Part shown: positions 10,319 to 24,393 of the stretch, piece after piece
Numbering within the stretch: position 1 is the stretch's first letter
Layout: the number at the start of each line of letters is the position of its first letter
Source: Cytophagaceae bacterium
Lineage (GTDB): Bacteria > Bacteroidota > Bacteroidia > Cytophagales > Cyclobacteriaceae
DNA length: 64,000 bases
Assembly (NCBI GenBank): GCA_006969745.1
Contig: CP030886.1
Span: forward strand, 806,001 to 870,000
Direction of reading: 5' to 3'
The notes under the pieces: model-generated
The model's input: only the letters and a program-made list of their open reading frames with translations
What the model was told of the DNA's origin: nothing
Database searches by the model: none
Made by a program: the position numbers and the translations under genes

Positions 10319-13207
10319 ATGCTAAGAAAAAGCCTTATAATTCTATTTACGGCAACATCATTTTCTCTACTAGGACAATCCTGTCTTCAAAAACTAGATA
10401 GTGCAGAATACTTCAAGTATAGTAATCCACTGAAATCTAAATTCTATGCCAGTTCCCTCCTATCGGATTTAGACTCTGCAAAGTGTGTCACTGAAATTGG
10501 CATTGCGGGACTTTATAATAATGTGGGCTTAATACTTTGGGAAGTCAATGACAAACAGCGCAGTTTAAACGCATTGCACAGTGGACTTAGCTTTGAAGTG
10601 GCCAAGAAAGATTCGTTGCATCAAGACCTTCTGGGAATTTATTATAACCTTTCGGCTCTTTACCAGGAATTAGGAGAATTTGAAAAGGCGGGGAAATTTC
10701 TTGAGCTCGCAGGAAGAGTAACCTCTGCGAGGCTATCCAATGATACTAAAGCACAAATCAGGTATTTATATCGCGTAGGAATATATCATAGGGAAGTAGG
10801 AAACTTTGAAGAAAGTCTACAGGCGCTAAATCAAGGACTTGCAACCGGAAAAGACTTAAGTGACTCAATCAGCATTGCGCTACAAATTGAACTGGGCACC
10901 ACATATCGACATTTTGGCGATCTCAACAAAAGCGAAAGTGAACTTCTCAAAGCCATAGAAATGGCAAAAGGAAAAGACGAAATCCAGTATTTCCGAGCTA
11001 TTGATCGACTATCGGCTTTAAAAATTGAACAAGGAGAATATTCGGATTCTGAAAACTACCTGCTCTACAATCTTGAGAAAAAAAATGCAAACTACCAGGA
11101 GGATAAGATCATGCTCTTGGAGACACTCAATGGTTTGAGTATCCTCTACTATCGACTCAACGACCTAAAGACTGCCAACAACTACATGGATCAGGCTTTG
11201 AATGTAGCTGGTGAAATACGAACTATTCGACCTTATATGATCAACAATCTTGGCACGATCTACAAACGCCAAGGCGACATTGAAAAGGCTGAAGAATGTT
11301 TTCTTGAGAGCTCCAAGGGTTTTTTAGAACTTTTCGGATCCATGAATCCTGATTATGCCAGCAGTTTGAGTAATCTGGCTAGTATTTATAAAGACAAAGG
11401 TGAGCTTCCAAAAGCACTTGACTTATACATGAAGGTATTGGATATGGATAAAGTTATATATGGAACCGAGCATGCCAACTATGCCACCTCGCTTAACAAC
11501 GTAGCTCTTCTCTATCTTCAATTTGGTAACTTCTCTCTGGCTGGAAAGCTCCTGACTGAAGCCAAAAGAATACGCGCCAATACACTCGGCAACTATCATC
11601 CGCTTTATATCAAAACGGTAAATGATTTGGGTCTTTATTACATGATCATAAAAGACTATCAAAAGGCAATGGAGTCTTTCGATCATGCGCTTTCGGCGGA
11701 AATCAAACACATGCAAGATATATTTCCTGTGCTTACAGATAATCAGCGGAAACTTTACTTTGATGAGACCAGGTACAATATCGGCAGGTTTTGTGCACTT
11801 GCCTTTGCCGATGATAACATTGATTCTAAATACGCCAACAATGCACTAAATCACTTTTTGAATACGCGAGGTATCCTTTTTTATGCATCTGAGAAAATGA
11901 GAAAGTTGATTCAAAACAGCGATGATGACAAAATAAAAAGGGACTATAACACCTGGCGTGAGAAAAAATACAGCTTAGCACAAGCATACCTGCTTACCGA
12001 AGAAGATAGAATAAAGCAAGGAATATCTATCACACACCTGGAAGAAGAATGCGCCAATCTTGAGAAAGACCTTTCGCGTAAGTTTAAGGTCTTTGCTGAT
12101 CAGGAAAAATCTACCTATCACCATTGGTCTGAAATAAGTCATGAATTAGAGGATAGCACTGCTATGGTTGATATCATTCAGTATAGAGACTATTCGGTAG
12201 AGGTAGTAGATGAGAAGATCGATCAAGGGTTTGAAGATGAATCGCACTACATGGCCTTTATCATAAAGAAAGATAGTGTGTTGGAAACGGTGAAATTTCC
12301 TTCAATAGACCTAACCAAAGGTTTTGCTACCTATCGAAATTCTTTAAAGTATGGAGTGAAAGACAAGCGCAGTTACGGAGTATTCTGGCAACCTATCGAC
12401 GAGCATTTAAATGATGTAAACAAGCTTTATTTATCACCTGACGGGATTTATCATAAATTGAACCCGGTGGTCTTCTACGATGATCGAAGTGATAAATACA
12501 TGTCTGACAAGTACGATATTATCAATATCACAAGTGGCAAGGATTTGTTGTACAGAGACGCTTCTGAGCTAGTCACAGATGCCAAAATTTTCGGAAATCC
12601 TGACTTTTCCAGAATTGAAGGATTTACACTCAATCAGTTGCCCGGAGCTGAACAAGAGGCGAGTGATATAAGCGAAATACTGGACGTACGCAGATGGAAA
12701 ACAGAAACCTTTTATTTCTCTGAAGCTACCGAGGATCGAATCAAAAATTTTAACAATCCCGGCATCATACACATTGCTACGCATGGATATTTTATTGATG
12801 ATCCAAATTATACTGATCCATTGCATAGTTCAGGGCTATTCTTAAGCAAGTCTGAGTCCAGCACCAATGATGGCTTGCTTTCAGCATATGAGGCCATGAA
12901 TCTGATTTTAGATCAAACCAATCTTGTAGTATTGGCCGCTTGTGAAACCGGCTTAGGAAAGGTTCAAAATGGTGAAGGAGTGTTTGGACTTCAGCGGGCA
13001 TTTCTGGTAGCAGGAGCTCAAAATGTGCTCCTTTCACTTGTAAAGATAAATGACGAAGCGGCCCGTAAATTCATGAACCTTTTTTATAAAGAATTGCTCG
13101 TAGTGAAAGATCCGCAGAGGGCATTTTTTAATGCCAGAAGGGAGTTTAGAAAAGTAGATACAAACCCATATAATTGGGGAGCTTACATTTTGGTTTCTAA
13201 AGGATAG
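10319..13207 (+). CDS. exported TPR-CHAT protein (caspase-like cysteine protease fold)
   Basis: 962 residues. A signal peptide (about 1-20, hydrophobic with SLLGQ at the cleavage region) directs export. Tetratricopeptide repeats fill about residues 50-470 (for example YASSLSNLASIYKDKGELPKALDLY). A helical linker leads to a C-terminal CHAT domain (about 640-960). The catalytic pair is intact: His822 in IIHIATHGYF and Cys875 in LAACETGLG. CHAT domains belong to clan CD with caspases, gingipains and separase, so a peptidase role is likely, with the TPRs choosing the partner. It is convergent with the fibre-secretion operon, its stop ending at 13207 and the OmpA-like gene beginning at 13208. No CRISPR or gasdermin gene is nearby. 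A secreted processing enzyme is an inference. Confidence 0.88.
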   Translation: MLRKSLIILFTATSFSLLGQSCLQKLDSAEYFKYSNPLKSKFYASSLLSDLDSAKCVTEIGIAGLYNNVGLILWEVNDKQRSLNALHSGLSFEVAKKDSLHQDLLGIYYNLSALYQELGEFEKAGKFLELAGRVTSARLSNDTKAQIRYLYRVGIYHREVGNFEESLQALNQGLATGKDLSDSISIALQIELGTTYRHFGDLNKSESELLKAIEMAKGKDEIQYFRAIDRLSALKIEQGEYSDSENYLLYNLEKKNANYQEDKIMLLETLNGLSILYYRLNDLKTANNYMDQALNVAGEIRTIRPYMINNLGTIYKRQGDIEKAEECFLESSKGFLELFGSMNPDYASSLSNLASIYKDKGELPKALDLYMKVLDMDKVIYGTEHANYATSLNNVALLYLQFGNFSLAGKLLTEAKRIRANTLGNYHPLYIKTVNDLGLYYMIIKDYQKAMESFDHALSAEIKHMQDIFPVLTDNQRKLYFDETRYNIGRFCALAFADDNIDSKYANNALNHFLNTRGILFYASEKMRKLIQNSDDDKIKRDYNTWREKKYSLAQAYLLTEEDRIKQGISITHLEEECANLEKDLSRKFKVFADQEKSTYHHWSEISHELEDSTAMVDIIQYRDYSVEVVDEKIDQGFEDESHYMAFIIKKDSVLETVKFPSIDLTKGFATYRNSLKYGVKDKRSYGVFWQPIDEHLNDVNKLYLSPDGIYHKLNPVVFYDDRSDKYMSDKYDIINITSGKDLLYRDASELVTDAKIFGNPDFSRIEGFTLNQLPGAEQEASDISEILDVRRWKTETFYFSEATEDRIKNFNNPGIIHIATHGYFIDDPNYTDPLHSSGLFLSKSESSTNDGLLSAYEAMNLILDQTNLVVLAACETGLGKVQNGEGVFGLQRAFLVAGAQNVLLSLVKINDEAARKFMNLFYKELLVVKDPQRAFFNARREFRKVDTNPYNWGAYILVSKG

Positions 13208-15253
13208 TTATTGGCTGAATAGCTTCAAACTTTCCTCGCCTACCAGGAAATTGATTGGGCGTTCTACATTTGAATCTTCATATACACGAATGGTGTTGCC
13301 GGCAGCAAGAACTCCATTTTTTCCACCGTTCCATTCCATAAGTTGCTCATAGTCAACATTTAATATTTCTGCGATTTTTTGCATTGTTACCGATCGCCTG
13401 ATGATATATGTTTTGGCTGTCTGAAGATTTAGTTCTTCGCTTGTTTTCACAATAATCTCTACGCGCCTTCGGAATATTCTACGAAACCAGTGATCCTTAC
13501 CCTGCGAAGGAATCTCTCCGCGTGGGAGAACATTGATTTTCGCAGAATCAATACCAAGTGAGAAAAGGTATGCTTTGGTCGCTTCACCTCTATTTCTACT
13601 AAGTCTTAAATTGCCATTATCCGTACCAATACTATCGGTAAATGCTAAGATGTCTATGGATTGAAAATTGCGTCCTTGAATTTGTTCAAAGAGGTAATCC
13701 AGCCCTGCTTTTGCTTCAGGTCTTAGTGCGGAAAGCCCATAATCAAAGTATAACTTTTCGAAGCGAAACTCAACAGATTCTCCGAATGCCACAGTCACAT
13801 CGTCTTCCAAAATTTTAGGTTTAGGCTTTGATGGCCTTATCGGTTCAAACAGATCATAGCCGGCATAATCCTCTACTCGAAATGTCACCAAATCTAGCGA
13901 CTGAATGTCCCTAAACTTCGAAACTAATCGAGCGTCGATCAACGACTCACCCGAAATCAATAAGGAAAGAAATAACCGTTCATTGCTTACTGCAAAGTTG
14001 TAAATGTTTAGGATTTCATGATCCGCTCGATTAGAAGAAAGAAATCCTACTGTATCTGATATTGCAAAATAGGTATCGTCCCAGGTAGAATTAAACGGAT
14101 CTCCAAGATTATATATCTGAGGCTCAAAGAACGATTCTCCTTTTGCCGCATACAAGTCATATCCTCCATATCCTACGTGTCCGTCGCTTGCAAACAGCAA
14201 ACATTCAAAAGCTGATGAATAGTAGGGTGTGATCTCATTTTCTGGGGAGTTTATTACTGCTCCCATGTTGATTGCCGGTGTCCAGGCTTCTTGTTCGAGT
14301 CCTTTTAGGCTCATCCAAATATCACTACCTCCATTTCCTCCTGACCTGTTTGAGCTGAAGAATAGAGTGTCGCCGGTGGCCGAAATTGCTGGTTGCTTAT
14401 TCTCTGATCCTGGTTCGTTTATATATGCATTCAGGGCTACAGGAGCAGTCCATTTATCGTTTTCAAGATACGATACCATGATAGTACACTGAGATCCTTG
14501 ACCTTCTGTGCAGGAGGAAAAATAGAATTTAGTGCCGTCCTTAGTAAAGGATCCTGATCCTTCTGGCCATTTGGTGTTCAATTTTGAAAAATCCTGATTG
14601 GATGACGACATCCTCCATCTTCCATTTCCCCTGTTTTCAAATGAAACCAAATCCGGTAAAAGTCCCTCATATTGCAACTCTTCGTATTGTGTTCCGGGTA
14701 GATTTCTTGTGGTGGCCAGGACCACATGTTTGCTGGATGGATTGACAACTGCACCAAAATCGTGAAACTTAGAATTGATCTCATCCATTGAATTTATGGC
14801 AAATCCTCGATCTGCCTTTTTTTGCCTGAGTGCCAGCTGGCATCCTTCACTTTGCTTTCGAGCCAGCTCAATCAAATAAGGTTCTGCGTCTGGTACCGAT
14901 ATTAGAAATGAATAGATTGAATCGGCTTCATTGAACCGAGTTTCTTGTTTAAGTAAGCCTGCGTAACTGTACATGGAACGCGCTCTGTACTCGTGATTAG
15001 GTGTATTACTTAACCTCAAAAAGGCCTCTTTGGCCTTTTCATATTGCAATGTTTTATTGTAGCACTCGGCCAGTCTGAATCGTGCAAAATGATTGTCTTT
15101 ATCAATTCCGGATATTTTATCATAAAACTCTATTGCATCATTGTAAACACCATTTTGATAATTCTCATCGGCCAATTTCAAGAGTTTTGGAACCGATTGA
15201 GAATACCCGACTATAGTGGCGAATATGCAACCTATGGTGAGTATTTTTTTCAT
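13208..15253 (-). CDS. TPR-PD40-OmpA-LysM envelope protein
   Basis: 681 residues. A signal peptide (about 1-18) is followed by TPR-like helices (about 20-170) and PD40/WD40-like beta-propeller repeats (about 235-410, with the recurrent SSNR and GG.D.W/Y patterns). An OmpA C-terminal peptidoglycan-binding domain lies at about 490-600 (LYFDYGLSALRPEA; AFTDSIGTDNGNLRLSRNRG), and a terminal LysM-like domain at about 610-658 (TYIIRRSVTMQKIAEILNVD). The TPR-PD40-OmpA order resembles PorE and related type IX secretion components. Two different peptidoglycan-binding modules in one protein is less usual. It is the last gene of the fibre operon, 8 bases after porP/sprF. I infer that it anchors the outer-membrane complex to the cell wall. 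Confidence 0.88.
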   Translation of the reverse strand: MKKILTIGCIFATIVGYSQSVPKLLKLADENYQNGVYNDAIEFYDKISGIDKDNHFARFRLAECYNKTLQYEKAKEAFLRLSNTPNHEYRARSMYSYAGLLKQETRFNEADSIYSFLISVPDAEPYLIELARKQSEGCQLALRQKKADRGFAINSMDEINSKFHDFGAVVNPSSKHVVLATTRNLPGTQYEELQYEGLLPDLVSFENRGNGRWRMSSSNQDFSKLNTKWPEGSGSFTKDGTKFYFSSCTEGQGSQCTIMVSYLENDKWTAPVALNAYINEPGSENKQPAISATGDTLFFSSNRSGGNGGSDIWMSLKGLEQEAWTPAINMGAVINSPENEITPYYSSAFECLLFASDGHVGYGGYDLYAAKGESFFEPQIYNLGDPFNSTWDDTYFAISDTVGFLSSNRADHEILNIYNFAVSNERLFLSLLISGESLIDARLVSKFRDIQSLDLVTFRVEDYAGYDLFEPIRPSKPKPKILEDDVTVAFGESVEFRFEKLYFDYGLSALRPEAKAGLDYLFEQIQGRNFQSIDILAFTDSIGTDNGNLRLSRNRGEATKAYLFSLGIDSAKINVLPRGEIPSQGKDHWFRRIFRRRVEIIVKTSEELNLQTAKTYIIRRSVTMQKIAEILNVDYEQLMEWNGGKNGVLAAGNTIRVYEDSNVERPINFLVGEESLKLFSQ

Positions 15254-15261
15254 GCTATTAA

Positions 15262-16302
15262 TCAGAATATCGGACTTGAAACATTTCTCAATGGATTCGA
15301 AAGATCGAGATTGTAAGTTAAAGAAACCTCATAGGTAGGCAAGTTGGCGCCAAGCTGATCTGTGATATCGAACGATTGCGTATTTAGATCGAAGCTAAAG
15401 CCAATCTTCAGATTATCTATTTCAAATCCGGCTAGCACGATGATGGAATCTTCCAGACGATACCACGAACCAATCTGAAGATTTACGGCTGTATTGGAAG
15501 ATGGCGAACTTACCAGCGTGGAAAGATAAACGCCCGTGTTTATTTGACTACTGCCCTGGGAATACAGCACATAGGCTGAAGGATGTACGTACCATCGAGG
15601 AGCTATATTGAATTTTGAAGAACCGAATGCTTTAAACAGCAGACTTTTTCTTGCACCTTCCAGTCCTTCAATTGAAACGTTGGCTCGATTCAGATTATCA
15701 ACGCTTAGTCCAAATAGCAAGCTCTTATCGCGGATGTATCTATTCTCATTGTCAAAAGAAGAATAAATCACGCCAAAGTTGAACGTTGGGTAAAGAACCG
15801 GGTTAGCACCTAAAGCCTCGCCTACTTTCGTATCGTCATATCCAATGTATCTATTGAATTGCGAACCCCATGTCAATACATTTCCATCAATTGTATGCTG
15901 AACAAGTCCGCCTTGCAGCCCAAATACAATGGTCTTATTTGTAAGTCGGCTTAGCCGAATGGCGTATGCTCCGGTCAGAAGGATCTTTTTGGAAGTATAG
16001 ATGCCTTCAAATCCTCGCTTTTCCTGAAAAAATGTAATTCCCGCGCCTCCTATTTGATGGTCTTTACTTGTTGTCTTTTTAAAAGGATAGGTGAAAGTGA
16101 CCTGCAGCAGCTCAAGGAATGCATCTGAACTTGGCGATCCTCCTCTTTTGTAATTAGAATTGAATGAAAGATTTGGTATAGTTCCCGTAAATGCAGGATT
16201 GAGGACACTCGAACTTGCAAAGTACTGAGAAAATTGGCCTTCCTGTCCCAGCAAAGAGAACGAGCATGCTATCAATAATATGGTGATTAGCTGCTTCTTC
16301 AT
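15262..16302 (-). CDS. PorP/SprF family type IX secretion outer-membrane protein
   Basis: 346 residues with a signal peptide ending near SLLGQ. The mature start FSQYFASSSVLNPAFTGTIPNLSFNSN (about 24-50) is the diagnostic PorP/SprF opening (Q(Y/F)...NPA..G). The remainder alternates hydrophobic strands, as expected for an outer-membrane beta barrel. In known systems, SprF-like proteins are encoded next to, and are specifically needed for, secretion of a type B sorting-domain cargo. Here the gene directly follows such a cargo-type gene, overlapping it by 4 bases, and precedes the OmpA/LysM protein. A cargo-specific accessory role is therefore likely. Confidence 0.92.
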   Translation of the reverse strand: MKKQLITILLIACSFSLLGQEGQFSQYFASSSVLNPAFTGTIPNLSFNSNYKRGGSPSSDAFLELLQVTFTYPFKKTTSKDHQIGGAGITFFQEKRGFEGIYTSKKILLTGAYAIRLSRLTNKTIVFGLQGGLVQHTIDGNVLTWGSQFNRYIGYDDTKVGEALGANPVLYPTFNFGVIYSSFDNENRYIRDKSLLFGLSVDNLNRANVSIEGLEGARKSLLFKAFGSSKFNIAPRWYVHPSAYVLYSQGSSQINTGVYLSTLVSSPSSNTAVNLQIGSWYRLEDSIIVLAGFEIDNLKIGFSFDLNTQSFDITDQLGANLPTYEVSLTYNLDLSNPLRNVSSPIF

Positions 16303-17501
16303 TTGACAAGTAAAATTGAACCGACCTGCGTATATTCTTGAGAATCTGCAACTATTCTTACATTGTAATAATACACCCCTTCCGGGGCATCCTGACCAGA
16401 ATTAAGTACACCATTCCAACTAAACTGAGAAACATCTAAGTCGTCACCGCTCTGACTCACGGTAAAGACCTGCTTGTTGAAGGAATCATATAAAGCAATT
16501 GAAATCGATGTGACAAGCGTTCCGGTGAAGTAGGCCTTGAATTCCCTGTTTTCTTCTAAGGTAGCATTAGGCGCAAATGCTTTTGGGATATACAGGCGCG
16601 GCTCATCAACCAAAGGAACCAAGGCAATTGCCATCCTTCGTCCTTCATTTGTGATCCAAATTGATTCATTGGAAGTAATTGTCCCGCTTGGGTTAAATGG
16701 ATCAGCCGTATTCTGAGTGCCATCTAAAATATGATATAGTGTATCCTGCTTGGAAAATAATGCGATGGCAGGCGTGTAGGCATTGGCGCGAATTGATTCT
16801 CCATTTGAAAAATTATTGAGATCAACACCGGAAAAACTTACTGATATCTGAGCTGTAGTGGAATCTCCTTTGACTTTCAAAATCCACTCCACTTCATCAC
16901 TCAACCCGACCATGTCTTCATCCGGTAATAACTGTGCCTGATCAGGAATTCTGCACTCAACACTTACTATGCTACCTGTAGCTAAACTTGAGATAGTTAC
17001 ATAATTTGGAGATCCATTTACACCCATTGGGAATGTGACTGGTCCTCCTTGAGAGATGCCTACCAGCTTTCCTTCAACGTAGCCTGTTCCCAGTGCCTGT
17101 GAACTACCGCTGACCAATAAGTCTTCTTCATCTTCGGCATCTATAATTCCGCTGCGGGTTTCCAAGGCTCCGGAAACTATTACGCGATCTGTTAATAGCG
17201 TCAATTTACCTTGCTTATCAACCACAAAATCTCCAACCTCTAAGGTGTCGCCGCTAAGGTTTTGATCATTCGCACCAGTAAATTTAAGGTTGCCCACATC
17301 CCTATTGAGCACAAAGTCAAAATCACCGTAACTAACAATAGTCCCGGTATTCGTAAGGGACCCATTGAGACTCGTGTTTCCTCCAAAGAAAAAGACGGTT
17401 CCATCACCTACATATAGTGATGTTTGGTCTCCAAATGTGATGGATTGAGATAATGCCGTGTGGGCACAAATCATAACGATAACTCCAAATAATTTTTTCA
17501 T
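16299..17501 (-). CDS. secreted protein with type B (gliding motility-associated) sorting domain
   Basis: 400 residues. A signal peptide (MKKLFGVIVMICAHTALSQ) precedes a beta-rich region of unknown family (about 20-300). The C-terminal ~95 residues match the gliding motility-associated/CHU_C sorting domain: YIPKAFAPNATL in place of the usual FSPNGDG, a YDSFNKQVF strand, FSWNG, then APEGVYYYNVRI. This domain routes cargo through the type IX secretion system. The gene starts 4 bases after the giant fibre gene and is followed by porP/sprF. Because the fibre itself shows no sorting domain, this protein may act as its secretion partner or surface anchor, which is my inference. Confidence 0.85.
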   Translation of the reverse strand: MKKLFGVIVMICAHTALSQSITFGDQTSLYVGDGTVFFFGGNTSLNGSLTNTGTIVSYGDFDFVLNRDVGNLKFTGANDQNLSGDTLEVGDFVVDKQGKLTLLTDRVIVSGALETRSGIIDAEDEEDLLVSGSSQALGTGYVEGKLVGISQGGPVTFPMGVNGSPNYVTISSLATGSIVSVECRIPDQAQLLPDEDMVGLSDEVEWILKVKGDSTTAQISVSFSGVDLNNFSNGESIRANAYTPAIALFSKQDTLYHILDGTQNTADPFNPSGTITSNESIWITNEGRRMAIALVPLVDEPRLYIPKAFAPNATLEENREFKAYFTGTLVTSISIALYDSFNKQVFTVSQSGDDLDVSQFSWNGVLNSGQDAPEGVYYYNVRIVADSQEYTQVGSILLVK

Positions 17502-17505
17502 AAAA

Positions 17506-20500
17506 TTATGGTTGTGAGGTTCGTCCGATTTCTATCCAAAATGAACCTACATATACCAAGTGCAAGGTCGAATTCACATTCATCAAGAAATTGGTATCGT
17601 TGTTCTCTAGCTGAATATTTACTCCGCCATTGTCCGCATCAATAATATCAACACCAGCTGCTTGAGCAACAAGAATGATTTCTTGTCCGGGCAACCCTGT
17701 AGCTAGATCACTGATTGGCCCTCCATCTAATGTCACAATTCGTGTGTCGGTTGCCACCGGGTCAGCACTAAATGGACCTGAGATAGCACTAACTAAATTA
17801 CCTCCCAATGAAATATCGCTAGCTGTATTAACCGCACCATTTACATCGAGTGTAGCTGTTGGATTGGCAGTGCCAATTCCTACGTTTAAATTATTATTTG
17901 TGCCGTCTCCCAATGCTATTACATTGGCAGTATTAACGAAGGTATTGTTTCCAATGGCAACTGAATTAGTGGAACCACCGGTCACTGATGCACCAAAACC
18001 AACCGCTATTGAGCCCGCTGCACCGGCCGTCGTACCTGTTCCAATCGCTGTTCCATTACCGACAGCATTTGCATTCGTACCTAATGCAATCGCACTCCCT
18101 CCTGAAGCAGCAGCAATATTTCCAATTGCTATTGAACCAGTCGACCCGGCAGTGACAATAGCATCAAATCCTAGCGCTATTGCGTTTACTCCTAATGTTT
18201 CAGCTCCAAAGCCATTAGATGTACCTCCTCCAATTGCTATGCCTCCATCTAAATCAACATAACTAGTAGTTCCAATTGATATGGCATCCAATGTTCCTGC
18301 AGAAACATCAGAAGCAGAACCTACGACAACATTTCCCGAGCCAGTAGTAATTGTATTTCCTGCACCATCACCTATTATAACATTTTGACCACCTCCCGCT
18401 AAGGCAGTAGCACCATTACCTCCAATACTATTTTGGTTAACGTCAAATACAAAATCACCAGCTCCACCTGGAGCCCAGGTAAGGTTGCCTGCACCATCAT
18501 TTGTGAGTGAACCTGTTCCCTGATTTTGAGGTAAAATCACAGTATACGCACTACTTGTCGGATGAGCTTGCAATACAAAAGCATTAGCTCCCCCATCATC
18601 TTCAAGTTCTAATGTTCCTCCAAACCCTGGAGTAGGGTTATCTACACGAATAACACCATGTGTCTCGATGATGCCGTGATTGGCTGCACTCCCAGGAAGA
18701 CCTGAAGAGATTACTACATCACCTCCGTTGCCTCCTGTGGCATCTCCATCTCCGGCATTTAAGTATAAATTACCCCCTTGATCAGGTGATCCGCTTGCTG
18801 AACCACCGGCGCTGATTGCAAAGTTATTTCCGGGACCAGTTCCATTTGTGAAAATACTAATGGACCGATCTACACCATCGAAGAAACTTACATTCCCATC
18901 AACCTCTATAGCATCACCTCCATTACTTCTAAATCTAGCAGCTTGTCCAGCACCAGAGTTTTGAACTTCGAACAAAACTCCACCATCAGCCTGCGTTTGA
19001 GAAAAGGGTAAAGTCAAGCCTCCTCCGCCAAGAGAATTCCATGATCCTGCAGTATATCCCTCGAATGCTGATCCGTTGTACCGAATCATCCCATCCTCCT
19101 CATCTCCCGGATCTGGTGACCCTAATCGAATACCTTCTGAAACGTCGATATTTCCATCATTTCTCATACCCATCCAGCTACGAACATCTGTACCTGAATC
19201 AGATAAATCCAACTGAGAATCCGGCGCACCGTTAACCACATTCATGAACAATATTTCTCCATCGTCAAAGAATATAAATGAGGCAGAATCTGAATTTGTT
19301 CTTCTCAGCTGATTTACTGTCGGAACAGAATAATCAGGATAAAGATTTGACATGATTGCATCTCCTAATATGGTTTCCGTACTGTTTTCAAAATGTCCCA
19401 TACTAAGTTCGCCACCGATTTGTAATGGAGCTCTCACATCTTGAACTCCAATGCCAACAAAGTAATCTGAGTTGATGCCATCACCCAATATAATGGTATT
19501 TGGAATATTAGCGTCTGTGTTGGTACCAATTGCTATTGCATCATTTGCATTAGACACAGCATTTCTTCCTATTGCAATTCCATCGATATTATTCGTTTGG
19601 GCGTTAAATCCAATTGCTACACTACCATCCCCCGGAGCATTTGCATTGAATCCAATACCAACCACATTTTGAGAAGTAGAGCTTGTATTTGAGCCTGATC
19701 CTATTAGCGTATTTCTAGTCCCACTAATAAGTGTTAAACCGGAATTTCGTCCAACTGTCACGTTATCTGTTCCAGTTGTAATGCCACTACCTGAATTTTC
19801 TCCAATTAAAACGTTTCTGTCTCCTCCAGTCATCAAGCTACTTCCTGCTGCAAAACCAGCGATTAGGTTTTCTGTAAACGGGTTATCAATAAGTCCTGAA
19901 CCTCCACCGATAGGTCCCCAAGCTCCTTCAATGAAGCCTTCAAAACCCTCAGCTCCAGGCTCGTTGCTATACCTTAACATTCCATTTGCTGGGACTCCAG
20001 GACGTTGTGCATCGTTGCCAATTGGCAGCTGAATTGCGTCAGTTCCAACAATATCCAATATTACTCCCGGAGTAGTTGTTCCTATCCCAATTGGTGCATC
20101 CGTTGTAATAGCAGGTCCAACACCTGCATGAATCACATTAATAACAGCACTAGAATTACTACCATTATTATTCGAAAAAGTAGCGGTATGGCCTAACCCG
20201 CTTGTAAAAGCATTAAGGGCTTGTGCAGTTCCGGTTGCATTATCATAGGATATACGAGCTGCGTCTCCTGCTCCATTACTTTGTGCAAGAAGTGCATAAG
20301 AACCAGCGGCTCCATCTGAAAGTGCTTCTAATGCCGGCACAGTGCTACCAACATTTGTAACATTAAAGAAACCTGCTCTGAAATTTCCTGTTTGTGTGAT
20401 TGAGAATGCATCTGCTGTATTATCCAATCCTGAAAAAGGTAAGACTAAACCATTATCCACAGCTGGGTTCCAATTGGCTCCATCCCAGGCCAATACTTCT

Positions 20501-23500
20501 CCTGGATTAGGCGCTATTGCAGTGGTGTGAATGCTCATATCAAACGCGTCTCCGGCTATGGCGCCTGGATCATACGTGCCAGAAAGCATATCGCCTCCCG
20601 TGTTATCTACTGCAGGGTTCCAATTGGCTCCATCCCATGCCAATACTTCTCCTGGATTAGGCGCTATTGCAGTGGTATGAATACTCATGTCAAATACGTC
20701 TCCGGCTATGGCGCCTGGATCATACGTGCCGGAAAGCATGTCGCCTCCGGTGTTGTCTACTGCAGGGTTCCAATTGGCTCCATCCCATGCCAATACTTCT
20801 CCTGGATTAGGCGCTATTGCAGTGGTATGAATACTCATGTCAAACGCATCTCCGGCTATGGCACCTGGATCATATGTGCCAGAAAGCATGTCACCTCCGG
20901 TGTTATCTACTGCCGGATTCCAATTGGCTCCATCCCATGCCAATACTTCTCCTGGGTTTGGAGCGATCGCAGTGGTATGAATACTCATGTCAAATGCGTC
21001 TCCGGCTATGGCGCCTGGATCATACGTGCCTGAAAGCATGTCGCCTCCGGTGTTATCTACTGCCGGATTCCAATTGGCTCCATCCCATGCCAATACTTCT
21101 CCTGGGTTTGGAGCGATCGCAGTGGTATGAATGCTCATATCAAACGCGTCTCCGGCTATGGCGCCTGGATCATACGTGCCTGAAAGCATGTCACCTCCGG
21201 TGTTATCTACTGCAGGGTTCCAATTGGCTCCATCCCAGGCCAATACTTCTCCTGGATTAGGCGCTATTGCAGTGGTATGAATACTCATGTCAAACGCATC
21301 TCCGGCTATGGCACCTGGATCATATGTGCCAGAAAGCATGTCGCCATCGTCACTGCTATCTAAGTCTAAGGCTGGTGCCGAGTTCACGGCTGTGGTAGCG
21401 GCTGCTACGTTTGCTGCAGTCTGGCCACCTACCTGATCTACGGTGAAGCCGGCAGTATAACTACCTGATACATCGCCGGCAGCTGGATTGGCCCCTGTTA
21501 AAACATCATCACTTGTATCTAAATCTAAAGATGCTGCTCCATTAACTGTTGCAGTCGCTGCTGCTACGTTTGCTGCAGTTTGGCCGCCTACCTGATCTAC
21601 GGTGAAACCCGCAGTATAACTACCTGATACATCACCGGCAGCTGGAGCTGTTCCTGTAGCTACATCGTCACTGCTATCTAAGTCTAAGGCTGGTGCCGAG
21701 TTCACTGCGGTGGTAGCGGCTGCTACGTTTGCTGCAGTCTGGCCACCTACTTGATCTACGGTGAAGCCGGCAGTATAACTACCTGATACATCGCCCGCAG
21801 CTGGATTGGCCCCTGTTAAAACATCATCACTTGTATCTAAATCTAAAGATGCTGCTCCATTAACTGTTGCAGTCGCTGCTGCTACGTTTGCTGCAGTCTG
21901 ACCGCCTACTTGATCGACGGTGAAGCCTGCAGTATAACTACCTGATACATCACCGGCAGCTGGAGCCGTACCTGTAGCTACATCGTCACTGCTATCTAAG
22001 TCTAATGCTGGTGCCGAGTTCACGGCTGTGGTAGCTGCTGCTACGTTTGCTGCAGTCTGGCCACCTACTTGATCTACGGTGAAGCCAGCAGTATAACTAC
22101 CTGATACATCGCCCGCAGCTGGAGCTGTTCCTGTTGCCACATCGTCACTGCTATCTAAGTCTAAGGCTGGTGCCGAGTTCACTGCGGTGGTAGCGGCTGC
22201 TACGTTTGCTGCAGTCTGGCCACCTACTTGATCTACGGTGAAGCCGGCAGTATAACTACCTGATACATCGCCCGCAGCTGGATTGGCCCCTGTTAAAACA
22301 TCATCACTTGTATCTAAATCTAAAGATGCTGCTCCATTAACTGTTGCAGTCGCTGCTGCTACGTTTGCTGCAGTCTGGCCACCTACCTGATCTACGGTGA
22401 AGCCTGCAGTATAACTACCCGATACGTCGCCCGCAGCTGGAGCTGTTCCTGTTGCCACATCGTCACTGCTATCTAAGTCTAAGGCTGGTGCCGAATTCAC
22501 GGCTGTGGTAGCGGCTGCTACGTTTGCTGCAGTCTGGCCACCTACCTGATCTACGGTGAAGCCGGCAGTATAGCTTCCTGATACATCACCGGCAGCTGGA
22601 GCCGTACCTGTAGCTACATCGTCACTGCTATCTAAGTCTAATGCTGGTGCCGAGTTCACTGCGGTGGTAGCGGCTGCTACGTTTGCTGCAGTCTGGCCAC
22701 CTACTTGATCTACGGTGAAGCCGGCAGTATAACTACCTGATACATCGCCCGCAGCTGGAGCTGTTCCTGTTGCCACATCGTCACTGCTATCTAAGTCTAA
22801 GGCTGGTGCCGAGTTCACTGCGGTGGTAGCGGCTGCTACGTTTGCTGCAGTCTGGCCACCTACTTGGTCTACGGTGAAGCCAGCAGTATAACTACCCGAT
22901 ACGTCGCCCGCAGCTGGAGCTGTGCCTGTTGCAACATCATCACTACTATCTAAGTCTAAGGCTGGTGCCGAGTTCACGGCTGTGGTAGCGGCTGCCACGT
23001 TTGCTGCAGTCTGGCCACCTACTTGATCTACGGTGAAGCCTGCAGTATAACTCCCAGAGACATCACCGGCTGCTGGATTGGCGGCATTGGTAATATCATT
23101 TGTTTGATCCAAATCGAGATTTGCAGGTATTCCTGTTAATTCTGAGAAATCAATTCCATCTTTAATATTTGCAGGAACAGTTGGGTCACTTTCTGTTACA
23201 ACAAATCCCGCAGTAGTCAAGTCAATGGTATTGCCTCTTTCAACAGAAAGATTGGTTCCCGATAGACTTAAATTCTGATTATCTGTATTTAAGGCACTTA
23301 AATCAACTGTATTTCCATTTGCTATTGAAAGATTGGTTCCTGCTAAAGTCAGGTTCTGGTTGTCAGTGTTGGTTGTTACTACCCAATTTGGGTTTACCCA
23401 GAAATAAAATGCATTTAAATCACTATCAAATATCATCAAGCCATTGTCGCTTGCGGTTAGCGAACTTGCCATTCCGGTCCTTTGGGCGGTCGTTAGGCTA

Positions 23501-23661
23501 GGAATCAATAATCCCTGATTTCCATTGGGCGCCACAAGGTGTAAAACTGCATTAGGATTAGGAGTTTCGGTATTTATTCCGGCTGTAAACTCTTGAGCAG
23601 CAAGAGTGGCTGAGAGTAACAAAGTCGCCATTGCGACGAGAAGTCTCGGGGTAATTTTCAT
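17506..23661 (-). CDS. giant surface fibre/adhesin with two tandem-repeat arrays
   Basis: 2051 residues. Signal peptide about 1-22. The following segment (NPNAVLHLVAPNGNQGLLIP) is common at the start of Bacteroidota tail-fibre-like surface proteins. Residues 189-771 are 11 tandem 53-residue repeats (AAGDVSGSYTAGFTVDQVGG core). Residues 773-1070 are 6 near-identical 50-residue repeats (GDMLSGTYDPGAIAGDAFDM core). Both repeat types recall phage tail-fibre shaft motifs (VGGQTAANV; GDML..TYDP). About 1257-1403 and 1737-1924 hold YadA-head-like SxAIG repeats. GIGT.NPT..LDV segments recur. Repeats are acidic and Ala/Gly/Asn-rich with no Lys or Arg. No type IX sorting domain, S74 chaperone or autotransporter barrel is seen at the C-terminus. 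A trimeric beta fibre at the cell surface is the best inference. Confidence 0.85.
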   Translation of the reverse strand: MKITPRLLVAMATLLLSATLAAQEFTAGINTETPNPNAVLHLVAPNGNQGLLIPSLTTAQRTGMASSLTASDNGLMIFDSDLNAFYFWVNPNWVVTTNTDNQNLTLAGTNLSIANGNTVDLSALNTDNQNLSLSGTNLSVERGNTIDLTTAGFVVTESDPTVPANIKDGIDFSELTGIPANLDLDQTNDITNAANPAAGDVSGSYTAGFTVDQVGGQTAANVAAATTAVNSAPALDLDSSDDVATGTAPAAGDVSGSYTAGFTVDQVGGQTAANVAAATTAVNSAPALDLDSSDDVATGTAPAAGDVSGSYTAGFTVDQVGGQTAANVAAATTAVNSAPALDLDSSDDVATGTAPAAGDVSGSYTAGFTVDQVGGQTAANVAAATTAVNSAPALDLDSSDDVATGTAPAAGDVSGSYTAGFTVDQVGGQTAANVAAATATVNGAASLDLDTSDDVLTGANPAAGDVSGSYTAGFTVDQVGGQTAANVAAATTAVNSAPALDLDSSDDVATGTAPAAGDVSGSYTAGFTVDQVGGQTAANVAAATTAVNSAPALDLDSSDDVATGTAPAAGDVSGSYTAGFTVDQVGGQTAANVAAATATVNGAASLDLDTSDDVLTGANPAAGDVSGSYTAGFTVDQVGGQTAANVAAATTAVNSAPALDLDSSDDVATGTAPAAGDVSGSYTAGFTVDQVGGQTAANVAAATATVNGAASLDLDTSDDVLTGANPAAGDVSGSYTAGFTVDQVGGQTAANVAAATTAVNSAPALDLDSSDDGDMLSGTYDPGAIAGDAFDMSIHTTAIAPNPGEVLAWDGANWNPAVDNTGGDMLSGTYDPGAIAGDAFDMSIHTTAIAPNPGEVLAWDGANWNPAVDNTGGDMLSGTYDPGAIAGDAFDMSIHTTAIAPNPGEVLAWDGANWNPAVDNTGGDMLSGTYDPGAIAGDAFDMSIHTTAIAPNPGEVLAWDGANWNPAVDNTGGDMLSGTYDPGAIAGDVFDMSIHTTAIAPNPGEVLAWDGANWNPAVDNTGGDMLSGTYDPGAIAGDAFDMSIHTTAIAPNPGEVLAWDGANWNPAVDNGLVLPFSGLDNTADAFSITQTGNFRAGFFNVTNVGSTVPALEALSDGAAGSYALLAQSNGAGDAARISYDNATGTAQALNAFTSGLGHTATFSNNNGSNSSAVINVIHAGVGPAITTDAPIGIGTTTPGVILDIVGTDAIQLPIGNDAQRPGVPANGMLRYSNEPGAEGFEGFIEGAWGPIGGGSGLIDNPFTENLIAGFAAGSSLMTGGDRNVLIGENSGSGITTGTDNVTVGRNSGLTLISGTRNTLIGSGSNTSSTSQNVVGIGFNANAPGDGSVAIGFNAQTNNIDGIAIGRNAVSNANDAIAIGTNTDANIPNTIILGDGINSDYFVGIGVQDVRAPLQIGGELSMGHFENSTETILGDAIMSNLYPDYSVPTVNQLRRTNSDSASFIFFDDGEILFMNVVNGAPDSQLDLSDSGTDVRSWMGMRNDGNIDVSEGIRLGSPDPGDEEDGMIRYNGSAFEGYTAGSWNSLGGGGLTLPFSQTQADGGVLFEVQNSGAGQAARFRSNGGDAIEVDGNVSFFDGVDRSISIFTNGTGPGNNFAISAGGSASGSPDQGGNLYLNAGDGDATGGNGGDVVISSGLPGSAANHGIIETHGVIRVDNPTPGFGGTLELEDDGGANAFVLQAHPTSSAYTVILPQNQGTGSLTNDGAGNLTWAPGGAGDFVFDVNQNSIGGNGATALAGGGQNVIIGDGAGNTITTGSGNVVVGSASDVSAGTLDAISIGTTSYVDLDGGIAIGGGTSNGFGAETLGVNAIALGFDAIVTAGSTGSIAIGNIAAASGGSAIALGTNANAVGNGTAIGTGTTAGAAGSIAVGFGASVTGGSTNSVAIGNNTFVNTANVIALGDGTNNNLNVGIGTANPTATLDVNGAVNTASDISLGGNLVSAISGPFSADPVATDTRIVTLDGGPISDLATGLPGQEIILVAQAAGVDIIDADNGGVNIQLENNDTNFLMNVNSTLHLVYVGSFWIEIGRTSQP
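20452..21345 (-). repeat. tandem array, 6 copies of a 150-bp unit
   Basis: Six in-frame copies within the fibre gene encode a 50-residue unit with core GDMLSGTYDPGAIAGDAFDM. Five are identical at protein level; the fifth from the N-terminus has GDVFDM instead of GDAFDM. DNA differences between copies are nearly all synonymous and are shared in mosaic combinations, such as GGATTAGGCGCTATTGC versus GGTTTGGAGCGATCGC on the plus strand. The last copy lacks its final two codons. Confidence 0.97.
21349..23097 (-). repeat. tandem array, 11 copies of a 159-bp unit
   Basis: Eleven consecutive in-frame copies of a 53-residue unit in the fibre gene. The central block (AAGDVSGSYTAGFTVDQVGG and the following QTAANVAAAT) is invariant in every copy. 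Variation is confined to the unit edges. Copies ending ATVNGAASLDLDTSD are always followed by a copy beginning DVLTGANP; this junction occurs three times. Ordered from the N-terminus, the blocks are 5, 3, 2 and 1 copies long. The first copy starts DITNAANP. Confidence 0.97.
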
Positions 23662-23898: not shown

Positions 23899-24393
23899 AT
23901 GAATATCATTAAATTATCCGCCTACTTTATTCTCTCTATTTTACTTTTTTCGTGTGGAGGAGATTCAGACGATGCTGTTCCTGCTGGAAATAGTCTAACT
24001 GCAACAGTCACTGGTGACATTACTGCTAATTTTAATGCGTCTGGAGAAGTTCAGGGTCAAAAACTAGTACAGGCCAATCTCACGAGTTCGAGTAATGGAA
24101 ATGTGCTAGCCATTGTAGCGTCTGAAGGGACAGGTAACTCAATGGCAATCTCTATTGTTAGCTTTGATGGTGCCGGAACTTACAGCCTTGAAATCGCCTC
24201 AAGCAATACAGCAACATTCACTTCGGTAAATACATCCACCTTCGAAACAACAGGCATTACGGCTATTTCAGGAAGTATCGAGGTGACAGTTTCAGGAGAT
24301 GTTATAAATGGCACCTTTAGTTTTGACGGAGAAGGAAGTGATGACATTCAAGCTGAAGTAACTGGGCAATTTTCTGTCACCCCAGAAGAATAA
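23899..24393 (+). CDS. small surface or periplasmic lipoprotein, unknown function
   Basis: 164 residues. The N-terminus (AYFILSILLFSCGGDSDD) is a lipoprotein signal with lipobox LFSC, so Cys20 should be lipidated. The acidic residues after the GG could favour surface export, as reported for other Bacteroidota lipoproteins. The mature part is rich in Ser, Thr, Gly and acidic residues and is probably an all-beta domain; no known family is recognised. It lies 237 bases upstream of, and divergent from, the fibre operon, so it may belong to the same surface programme, but that is only positional. A hairpin terminator follows at 24432. Confidence 0.8.
   Translation: MNIIKLSAYFILSILLFSCGGDSDDAVPAGNSLTATVTGDITANFNASGEVQGQKLVQANLTSSSNGNVLAIVASEGTGNSMAISIVSFDGAGTYSLEIASSNTATFTSVNTSTFETTGITAISGSIEVTVSGDVINGTFSFDGEGSDDIQAEVTGQFSVTPEE

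What the first reader, a model, noticed from the sequence alone, without database searches (positions are those of the whole stretch)
20452..23097. Two adjacent perfect-register tandem arrays of different unit size in one gene
11 x 159 bp and 6 x 150 bp arrays lie back to back and all units stay in frame. The fibre length can thus change in steps of 53 or 50 residues by recombination. The repeats are so alike that short-read assemblies would collapse them.
Basis: seen in the sequence. Interest (0 to 1): 0.6.

Follow-up and report, generated by a model that had tools for sequence, protein, structure and literature searches.

The report
Variable-length repeat fibre on bacterial surface
A bacterium carries a gene for a long surface fibre whose shaft is built from two runs of near-identical protein blocks; the blocks are kept the same as protein while their DNA has drifted, and related species carry quite different numbers and kinds of blocks at the same place, so fibre length evolves by whole blocks.

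Summary
The arrays are real. One 2051-aa ORF (17506-23661, minus strand) holds 10.9 units of 53 aa fused directly to 6 units of 50 aa, all in frame. At least 28 silent changes and no amino-acid change separate the seven full main-type units (neutral expectation about 30% silent). So sameness is held by purifying selection on the protein; the copies are not fresh duplicates. The gene heads a T9SS island: fibre, type B CTD protein, PorP/SprF, PorE/OmpA, plus a convergent TPR-CHAT gene. Its tip and paralogues look like phage tail fibres or spikes. Orthologous loci carry other arrays: a sister pair differs by one 53-aa unit and by a whole 52-aa array; the genome's own third fibre is 6454 aa against 726 aa in a congener. 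Draft assemblies break on the fibre side of the island (17 to 0). It works like a Periscope Protein, but is probably a trimeric, T9SS-docked fibre: a new variant of a known kind. Copy-number change within one species was not testable here.

The parts
17506..23661 (-). Fibre gene, 2051 aa, N-terminal Sec-type signal peptide (by eye), no cysteine, no CHU_C or other T9SS C-terminal domain of its own
   Evidence: ORF and translation; Pfam: only YadA_head above its cut-off; Cys count
23287..23661 (-). Conserved fibre N-terminal domain (residues 1-125), shared with fibres at other islands
   Evidence: Homologues; BLAST query FIBN
21346..23073 (-). Array A: 10 full units of 53 aa plus 46 residues of an 11th; types a a a a b a a b a b a
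20449..21345 (-). Array B: 6 units of 50 aa, joined to the cut 11th A unit without linker
19600..19659 (-). Best YadA_head repeat (residues 1335-1354), one of several
   Evidence: PF05658 E 1.8e-13 for the whole protein, 3 stretches
17893..18303 (-). YadA-like head region (residues 1787-1923) resembling PDB 1p9h
   Evidence: phmmer against PDB, E 0.0011
17509..17874 (-). C-terminal tip, 122 aa, predicted beta-sandwich like phage tailspike C-terminal domains
   Evidence: AlphaFold2 pLDDT 81; Foldseek best PDB match a phage tailspike depolymerase, E 1.5e-3, 107 viral models at E <= 1e-3; Phage_depo_C matched by 10 of 11 homologues, weakly (E 0.043) by this one
16299..17501 (-). Type B CTD protein, 400 aa
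   Evidence: CHU_C E 5.4e-6, 26.9 bits against a cut-off of 27
15262..16302 (-). PorP/SprF outer-membrane protein; only cysteine is residue 13, no Cys-X-Cys tail
   Evidence: PF11751 E 7.9e-34, TIGR03519 E 3.2e-46; Cys positions
13208..15253 (-). PorE-like protein: TPR, PD40, OmpA, LysM
   Evidence: NF052230 T9SS_PorE E 1.3e-59 but 202 bits against a cut-off of 600
10319..13207 (+). TPR-CHAT protein, convergent and stop-to-stop with the PorE-like gene
   Evidence: PF12770 E 1.1e-54; neighbour at 17 of 18 evaluable loci fetched by the type B gene

Best explanation
The gene encodes a long surface fibre of a Cyclobacteriaceae-like bacterium, related by its parts to phage tail fibres/spikes and YadA heads and so probably a homotrimer. 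[quoted passage not shown] INFERRED: the T9SS exports the type B protein, which stays on PorP; PorP is tied to the wall by PorE; and the fibre is seated on this base and holds its tip away from the cell. Shaft length evolves by recombination among units (unequal crossing-over, conversion, block duplication), always in whole units. Purifying selection keeps every unit the same as protein while silent sites drift, so protein sameness is a selected property and not only a by-product of recent duplication.
For: Unit anatomy and silent-only divergence: type a (7 full units) at least 28 silent changes, 0 replacement; type b (3) 11 and 0; array B (6) 24 and 1; a random change would be silent with probability 0.23-0.31. 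dN/dS 0 in a and b, 0.007 in B (bootstrap 0-0.023), against pN/pS 0.036-0.278 for neighbouring regions between sister species. Family-wide, 26 TRF-found arrays with pS > 0.05 have median pN/pS 0.09, 15 below 0.1. Locus: of 20 regions fetched by the type B gene, all 11 with a complete upstream gene have a fibre there; the other 9 run off the contig. Array turnover between orthologues and 6454 aa against 726 aa at a third island. Contig-edge bias 17:0. Fibre nature: C1q-like tip; Peptidase_S74, Phage_depo_C. SprA present in the genome. PorE-PorP-type B complex: PMC9143113.
Against: No trimer could be modelled; the single-chain model of three A units failed (pLDDT 35.5). The fibre has no T9SS signal of its own, so its export route is unknown. 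Tip and CHU_C matches of the window proteins are weak (E 0.043; 26.9 of 27 bits). The four-gamete counts are small and repeated mutation could add to them. No same-species strains were compared. Family pN/pS values lean low because TRF needs similar DNA; six of the 26 arrays, mostly long-period ones probably out of register, gave 0.33-0.90.
Confidence: 0.68

Rival explanations
1. Ordinary recent tandem duplication: the units look alike only because they were copied recently, and selection on sameness is not needed.
For: This is the usual reading of homogenised repeats (PMC5120217). The 52-aa array of G059 fits it (pS 0.021).
Against: Window units differ at 17-33% of silent sites with no or one replacement; recent copies would be alike at silent sites too.
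Confidence: 0.1
2. The silent differences are themselves selected, to keep neighbouring units from recombining and so to hold the array length steady.
For: High silent divergence under identical protein; in array A neighbours are not more alike than distant units.
Against: Permutation tests of neighbour distance show no significant excess in either window array (P 0.215 and 0.807) or in any of the other 11 arrays; three of those show the opposite.
Confidence: 0.07
3. A prophage or phage-derived tail fibre gene that happens to lie beside T9SS genes.
For: Tip, Peptidase_S74 and PHROG tail-fibre matches in family members.
Against: The fibre and its partners recur together in different genera; no relative found in 2.9 million viral contigs; only short, low-identity phage matches.
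Confidence: 0.05
4. A gliding adhesin like SprB: a moving fibre on a SprF-type carrier.
For: Large repeat protein followed by PorP/SprF in a T9SS genome.
Against: The fibre has no type B CTD. Its PorP has no Cys-X-Cys tail, the feature tied to SprB movement (PMC12635249), and a PorE-like gene is adjacent, which Gorasia et al. suggest marks immobile anchors (PMC9143113).
Confidence: 0.1

Closest known systems
Periscope Proteins (SasG, Rib, Sgo_0707, CdrA; PMC8201768, PMC9704523)
   Same: Surface shaft of long, near-identical in-frame tandem repeats carrying end domains; unit number differs between relatives; assembly trouble without long reads.
   Different: Those are defined as single chains with units that fold alone and with high DNA identity. 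Here units are probably parts of a trimeric fibre, DNA identity is only 88-99% under (nearly) 100% protein identity, and anchoring is through T9SS proteins.
PorE-PorP-PG1035 complex of Porphyromonas gingivalis (PMC9143113)
   Same: The same three anchor components: PorE-like, PorP-like, type B CTD protein.
   Different: The window adds a separate long fibre gene upstream and a TPR-CHAT gene downstream, in one neighbourhood.
SprB/SprF gliding adhesin of Flavobacterium johnsoniae
   Same: Very large repeat protein with a PorP/SprF-type partner and T9SS.
   Different: Fibre lacks the type B CTD; PorP lacks the Cys-X-Cys tail; PorE-like gene present.
Trimeric autotransporter adhesins (YadA)
   Same: YadA_head repeats; probable trimer; shaft length can vary.
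   Different: No YadA membrane anchor domain or YadA stalk was found by Pfam.
Phage tail fibres and tailspikes
   Same: Tailspike-like C-terminal domain; paralogues end in Peptidase_S74.
   Different: Chromosomal, with a signal peptide and T9SS neighbours.

Membership tests
Periscope Proteins | Tandem units over 50 residues with at least 80% identity in a surface protein | tested here: met
   53-aa units, 100% within a type (44 of 53 residues between a and b); the 50-aa array is at the limit rather than above it
Periscope Proteins | Unit number varies between closely related strains | tested here: inconclusive
   Varies between species, including a sister pair; no strains of one species available
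Periscope Proteins | Monomeric chain with individually folding units | tested here: inconclusive
   Single-chain model failed, pLDDT 35.5; a shallow alignment may be the cause
Trimeric autotransporter adhesins | YadA_head repeats | tested here: met
   PF05658 E 1.8e-13
Trimeric autotransporter adhesins | C-terminal YadA membrane anchor | tested here: not met
   No such Pfam match; the C-terminus is a tailspike-like domain
T9SS type B substrate (for the fibre itself) | CHU_C C-terminal domain | tested here: not met
   No CHU_C match in the fibre; it is in the next gene
PorE-PorP-type B anchor complex | Adjacent genes for type B CTD protein, PorP and PorE-like protein | tested here: met
   PorP over its cut-off; CHU_C 26.9 of 27 bits; PorE 202 of 600 bits, E 1.3e-59
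PorE-PorP-type B anchor complex | Physical complex of the three proteins | not testable with these tools
   Needs pull-down
Mobile gliding adhesin system (SprB/SprF) | Cys-X-Cys in the PorP/SprF C-terminal tail | tested here: not met
   Only Cys13 in the protein
Phage tail fibre/tailspike | Tail-fibre domains | tested here: met
   (family level; weak by sequence for the window protein itself)
Phage tail fibre/tailspike | Located among phage structural genes or in viral contigs | tested here: not met
   T9SS neighbours; none in viral contigs

The most novel reading that the evidence does not exclude
A five-gene surface organelle: a tail-fibre-like, unit-built fibre docked through a type B protein on PorP and PorE, and coupled to a probably periplasmic TPR-CHAT caspase-like protein that senses or trims it. 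The fibre shaft is a protein ruler in which selection enforces identical units, contrary to the reported general rule that repeat copies diverge fast within a protein.
Probability: 0.2. Interest if true: 0.72.

Novelty: new variant of a known kind. Interest (0 to 1): 0.45.

Why it matters
Periscope-type length variation is described for single-chain stalks. This island would extend it to tail-fibre-like fibres of Bacteroidota held by T9SS parts. The silent-only divergence separates two causes of repeat sameness, recent copying and selection on the protein, and here favours selection; Persi et al. (PMC5120217) report the opposite trend, faster divergence among copies, as general. It also warns that counts of such fibres from draft genomes are biased, because contigs break at them.

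Tried and rejected
Selected silent divergence to stop recombination: neighbour-distance permutation gave no support. Recent duplication as the cause of sameness: contradicted by pS 0.17-0.33. Prophage origin: no support. A single-chain structure of the A units: failed. Promoter and terminator scans around the operon: promoter-like hits at the shuffled level (24 against 24.4), terminator-like 15 against 9.4; nothing was built on them. The tip profile A3 searched in 291 genomes of the order matched only 4, so tips diverge fast or the profile is narrow. Unit A in phages: no match; unit B: 10 records, best E 3e-3, not used as evidence. My first pN/pS scan found arrays by protein identity and so was biased; it was replaced by a TRF-based one. 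Literature: searches showed no paper, in the listings or passages read, that describes a tail-fibre-like gene or a CHAT gene in a type B/PorP/PorE island; most subscription papers are not covered.
Full report
OBSERVATION. The arrays exist as described. TRF gives 150 bp x 6.0 (20453-21345) and 159 bp x 10.9 (21345-23077), inside one minus-strand ORF of 2051 aa at 17506-23661. Unit by unit, array A is ten full 53-aa units plus 46 residues of an eleventh; array B (six 50-aa units) follows that cut eleventh unit with no linker. A has two unit types, eight a and three b, in the order a a a a b a a b a b a. They share their first 29 residues and differ at 9 positions afterwards.

Units of one type are identical as protein while their DNA differs. 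The seven full type a units carry at least 28 silent changes and none that alters a residue; the three b units 11 and 0; the six B units 24 and 1 (an A to V change). Under neutrality a change would be silent with probability 0.23-0.31, so 28 of 28 is of order 1e-15 (my arithmetic, taking changes as independent). Mean pairwise DNA identity is 93.8% (a), 95.4% (b) and 92.2% (B); pS is 0.229, 0.172 and 0.328; dN/dS is 0, 0 and 0.007 (bootstrap 0-0.023 for B; for a and b the bootstrap is uninformative because there is no replacement change). The three b units are identical as DNA over their last 30 or so codons, and their silent differences lie in the part shared with a, as segment exchange would give. 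Four-gamete conflicts occur in 12 of 21 informative site pairs in the shared part of A, 6 of 21 in the full a units and 34 of 91 in B. Recombination alone treats silent and replacement sites alike, so the missing replacements point to purifying selection on each unit.

IS THAT GENERAL? TRF on 38 fibre genes or fragments of this kind, with DNA-level detection, left 27 arrays of at least three units; 26 have pS above 0.05, with median pN/pS 0.09, 15 below 0.1 and 20 below 0.2. The other six gave 0.33-0.90; I judge most of them to be out of register (periods of 174-566 aa, or 74-77 aa with indels), but they are kept in the counts. For comparison, sister-species pN/pS (G059/G130) is 0.036 for the fibre N-terminus, 0.278 for its C-terminus, 0.107 for the type B gene, 0.038 for PorP, 0.054 for PorE, 0.043 for the first A-like unit and 0.123 for the N-terminus of a second fibre. 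So within-type ratios in the window are below the vertical ones. Persi et al. (PMC5120217; abstract, part 1 of the Results and sections 8-11 read) report that copies within a protein diverge faster than orthologues do, and call it universal, while noting more variable results in prokaryotes. My comparison uses few arrays and different lineages, so it is a lead against that rule, not a test of it.

NEIGHBOURHOOD. The fibre is followed by a type B CTD protein (CHU_C 26.9 bits against a cut-off of 27), a PorP/SprF protein (PF11751 117.9 bits against 22.3) and a PorE-like TPR/PD40/OmpA/LysM protein (NF052230 E 1.3e-59, 202 bits against 600). Convergent with the last, stop codon to stop codon, is a TPR-CHAT protein. 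The genome has SprA, nine PorP/SprF matches and four Peptidase_S74 matches, one of them in the third fibre. Of 20 regions fetched by the type B gene, 11 have a complete upstream gene and all 11 are fibres; in 9 the upstream frame runs off the contig (for L115 the start was read). The CHAT gene is beside the island in 17 of 18 evaluable regions (absent in L114; L099 and L115 not evaluable; L116 judged through the overlapping L049, where PorE and CHAT lie in another orientation). In two distant loci fetched through the fibre (L046, L051) the fibre gene is last instead of first.

WHAT THE FIBRE IS. Pfam gives YadA_head (E 1.8e-13), and residues 1787-1923 match PDB 1p9h (E 0.0011). The last 122 residues fold with fair confidence (pLDDT 81); the best PDB matches are a phage tailspike depolymerase (E 1.5e-3), a phage capsid spike and a phage baseplate/tail entry, and 107 viral models match at E <= 1e-3. 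Ten of 11 homologous tips match Phage_depo_C, the window's own weakly (E 0.043). Family members end in Peptidase_S74 or a C1q-like domain (just under its cut-off), both trimer-forming by general knowledge (recalled), and one matches many PHROG tail-fibre families. The A units did not fold as a single chain (pLDDT 35.5), which fits, but does not prove, a shaft that needs partner chains.

HOW LENGTH EVOLVES. A profile of unit A, run over 41 fibre sequences or fragments, finds 11 copies in the window, 4 (two of them very weak) in G007, 3 in G130, 2 in G059 and 1 in G006; unit B finds 6 in the window, 9 in G059 (one weak), none in the G130 fibre at the same island, and single copies in five other fibres. 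The motifs are old and their amplification is lineage-specific. In the sister pair G059/G130 (PorP 97.1%, PorE 94.8%) both fibre ends are conserved while the middle is replaced; the 52-aa array of G059 is recent (pS 0.021). Complete fibres at this island and its nearest counterparts range from 938 to 2051 aa; at a third island the window genome has 6454 aa and G007 has 726 aa. The window arrays are not recent: pS between units (0.17-0.33) is not far below that between sister-species genes (0.35-0.52).

ASSEMBLY. In draft genomes with at least 20 contigs, 22 of 33 full-length type B genes lie within 3 kb of a contig end on the fibre side and 5 of 33 on the other side; 17 are discordant in the first sense and none in the second (p 1.5e-5); with contigs of at least 20 kb it is 11 of 22 and 0 of 22. 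The rows were chosen by me (E up to 1.5e-8, nearly full length, contig length known); three further hits that would otherwise qualify (G141:C164, G063:C178, G089:C3) were left out because their contig length was not printed, and hits beyond the printed list were not seen. In this gene the exact repeats are at most 239 bp (A) and 104 bp (B), so collapse is not certain. The window genome is one contig, which makes the copy count credible but does not prove it.

MECHANISM. Gorasia et al. (PMC9143113; abstract and Discussion read) show a PorE-PorP-type B complex and suggest that PorE marks immobile anchors. PMC12618676 (passages) shows that type B substrates need their cognate PorP/SprF shuttle. 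PMC12635249 (passages) ties the Cys-X-Cys tail of SprF to movement; the window PorP has no such tail. I therefore read the island as a fixed base with a long fibre. How a fibre without a T9SS signal crosses the outer membrane is open; co-export with the type B protein is a guess. The closest known kind is the Periscope Protein (PMC8201768 and PMC9704523; passages), whose review definition requires single-chain stalks and sets trimeric autotransporters apart. So this works like one without being a proven member. A survey of fibrillar adhesins (PMC8286594; passages) lists YadA_head and CHU_C among Bacteroidetes adhesins; its passages hold neither PorP nor tail fibre.

VERDICT. A real, well-formed case of a known phenomenon (length-variable repeat fibre) in a new setting (tail-fibre-like fibre in a T9SS anchor island), with one sharp extra fact: units held identical by selection rather than by recent copying.

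Noticed in passing
window 10319-13207 (+): TPR-CHAT protein with a signal-peptide-like start and HIATHG / AACETG motifs (catalytic role recalled), convergent stop-to-stop with the PorE-like gene; beside 17 of 18 evaluable islands. Its link to T9SS fibres was not seen in the literature searched.
   Followed up: partly
G000:C1:1775406-1794770 (loci L197, L115): A third fibre of the same genome, 6454 aa, nearly all repeats (including about 10-11 units of 116 aa), ending in Peptidase_S74; the counterpart in congener G007 is 726 aa.
   Followed up: partly
L050 7345-11846: Two fibre genes in tandem in G007, the upstream one with a C1q-like tip just under the Pfam cut-off.
   Followed up: no
L104 7629-12349: The G130 fibre reading frame is interrupted within its repeats in this draft genome; real or assembly error unknown.
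   Followed up: no
L046, L051: In distant islands the fibre gene is last, after the PorE-like gene, instead of first.
   Followed up: no
window 23899-24393 (+): A small DUF6252 protein gene lies between the fibre and the FAD-dependent protein gene; no ORF of 120 aa or more was listed between the counterparts in L032 and L034.
   Followed up: no
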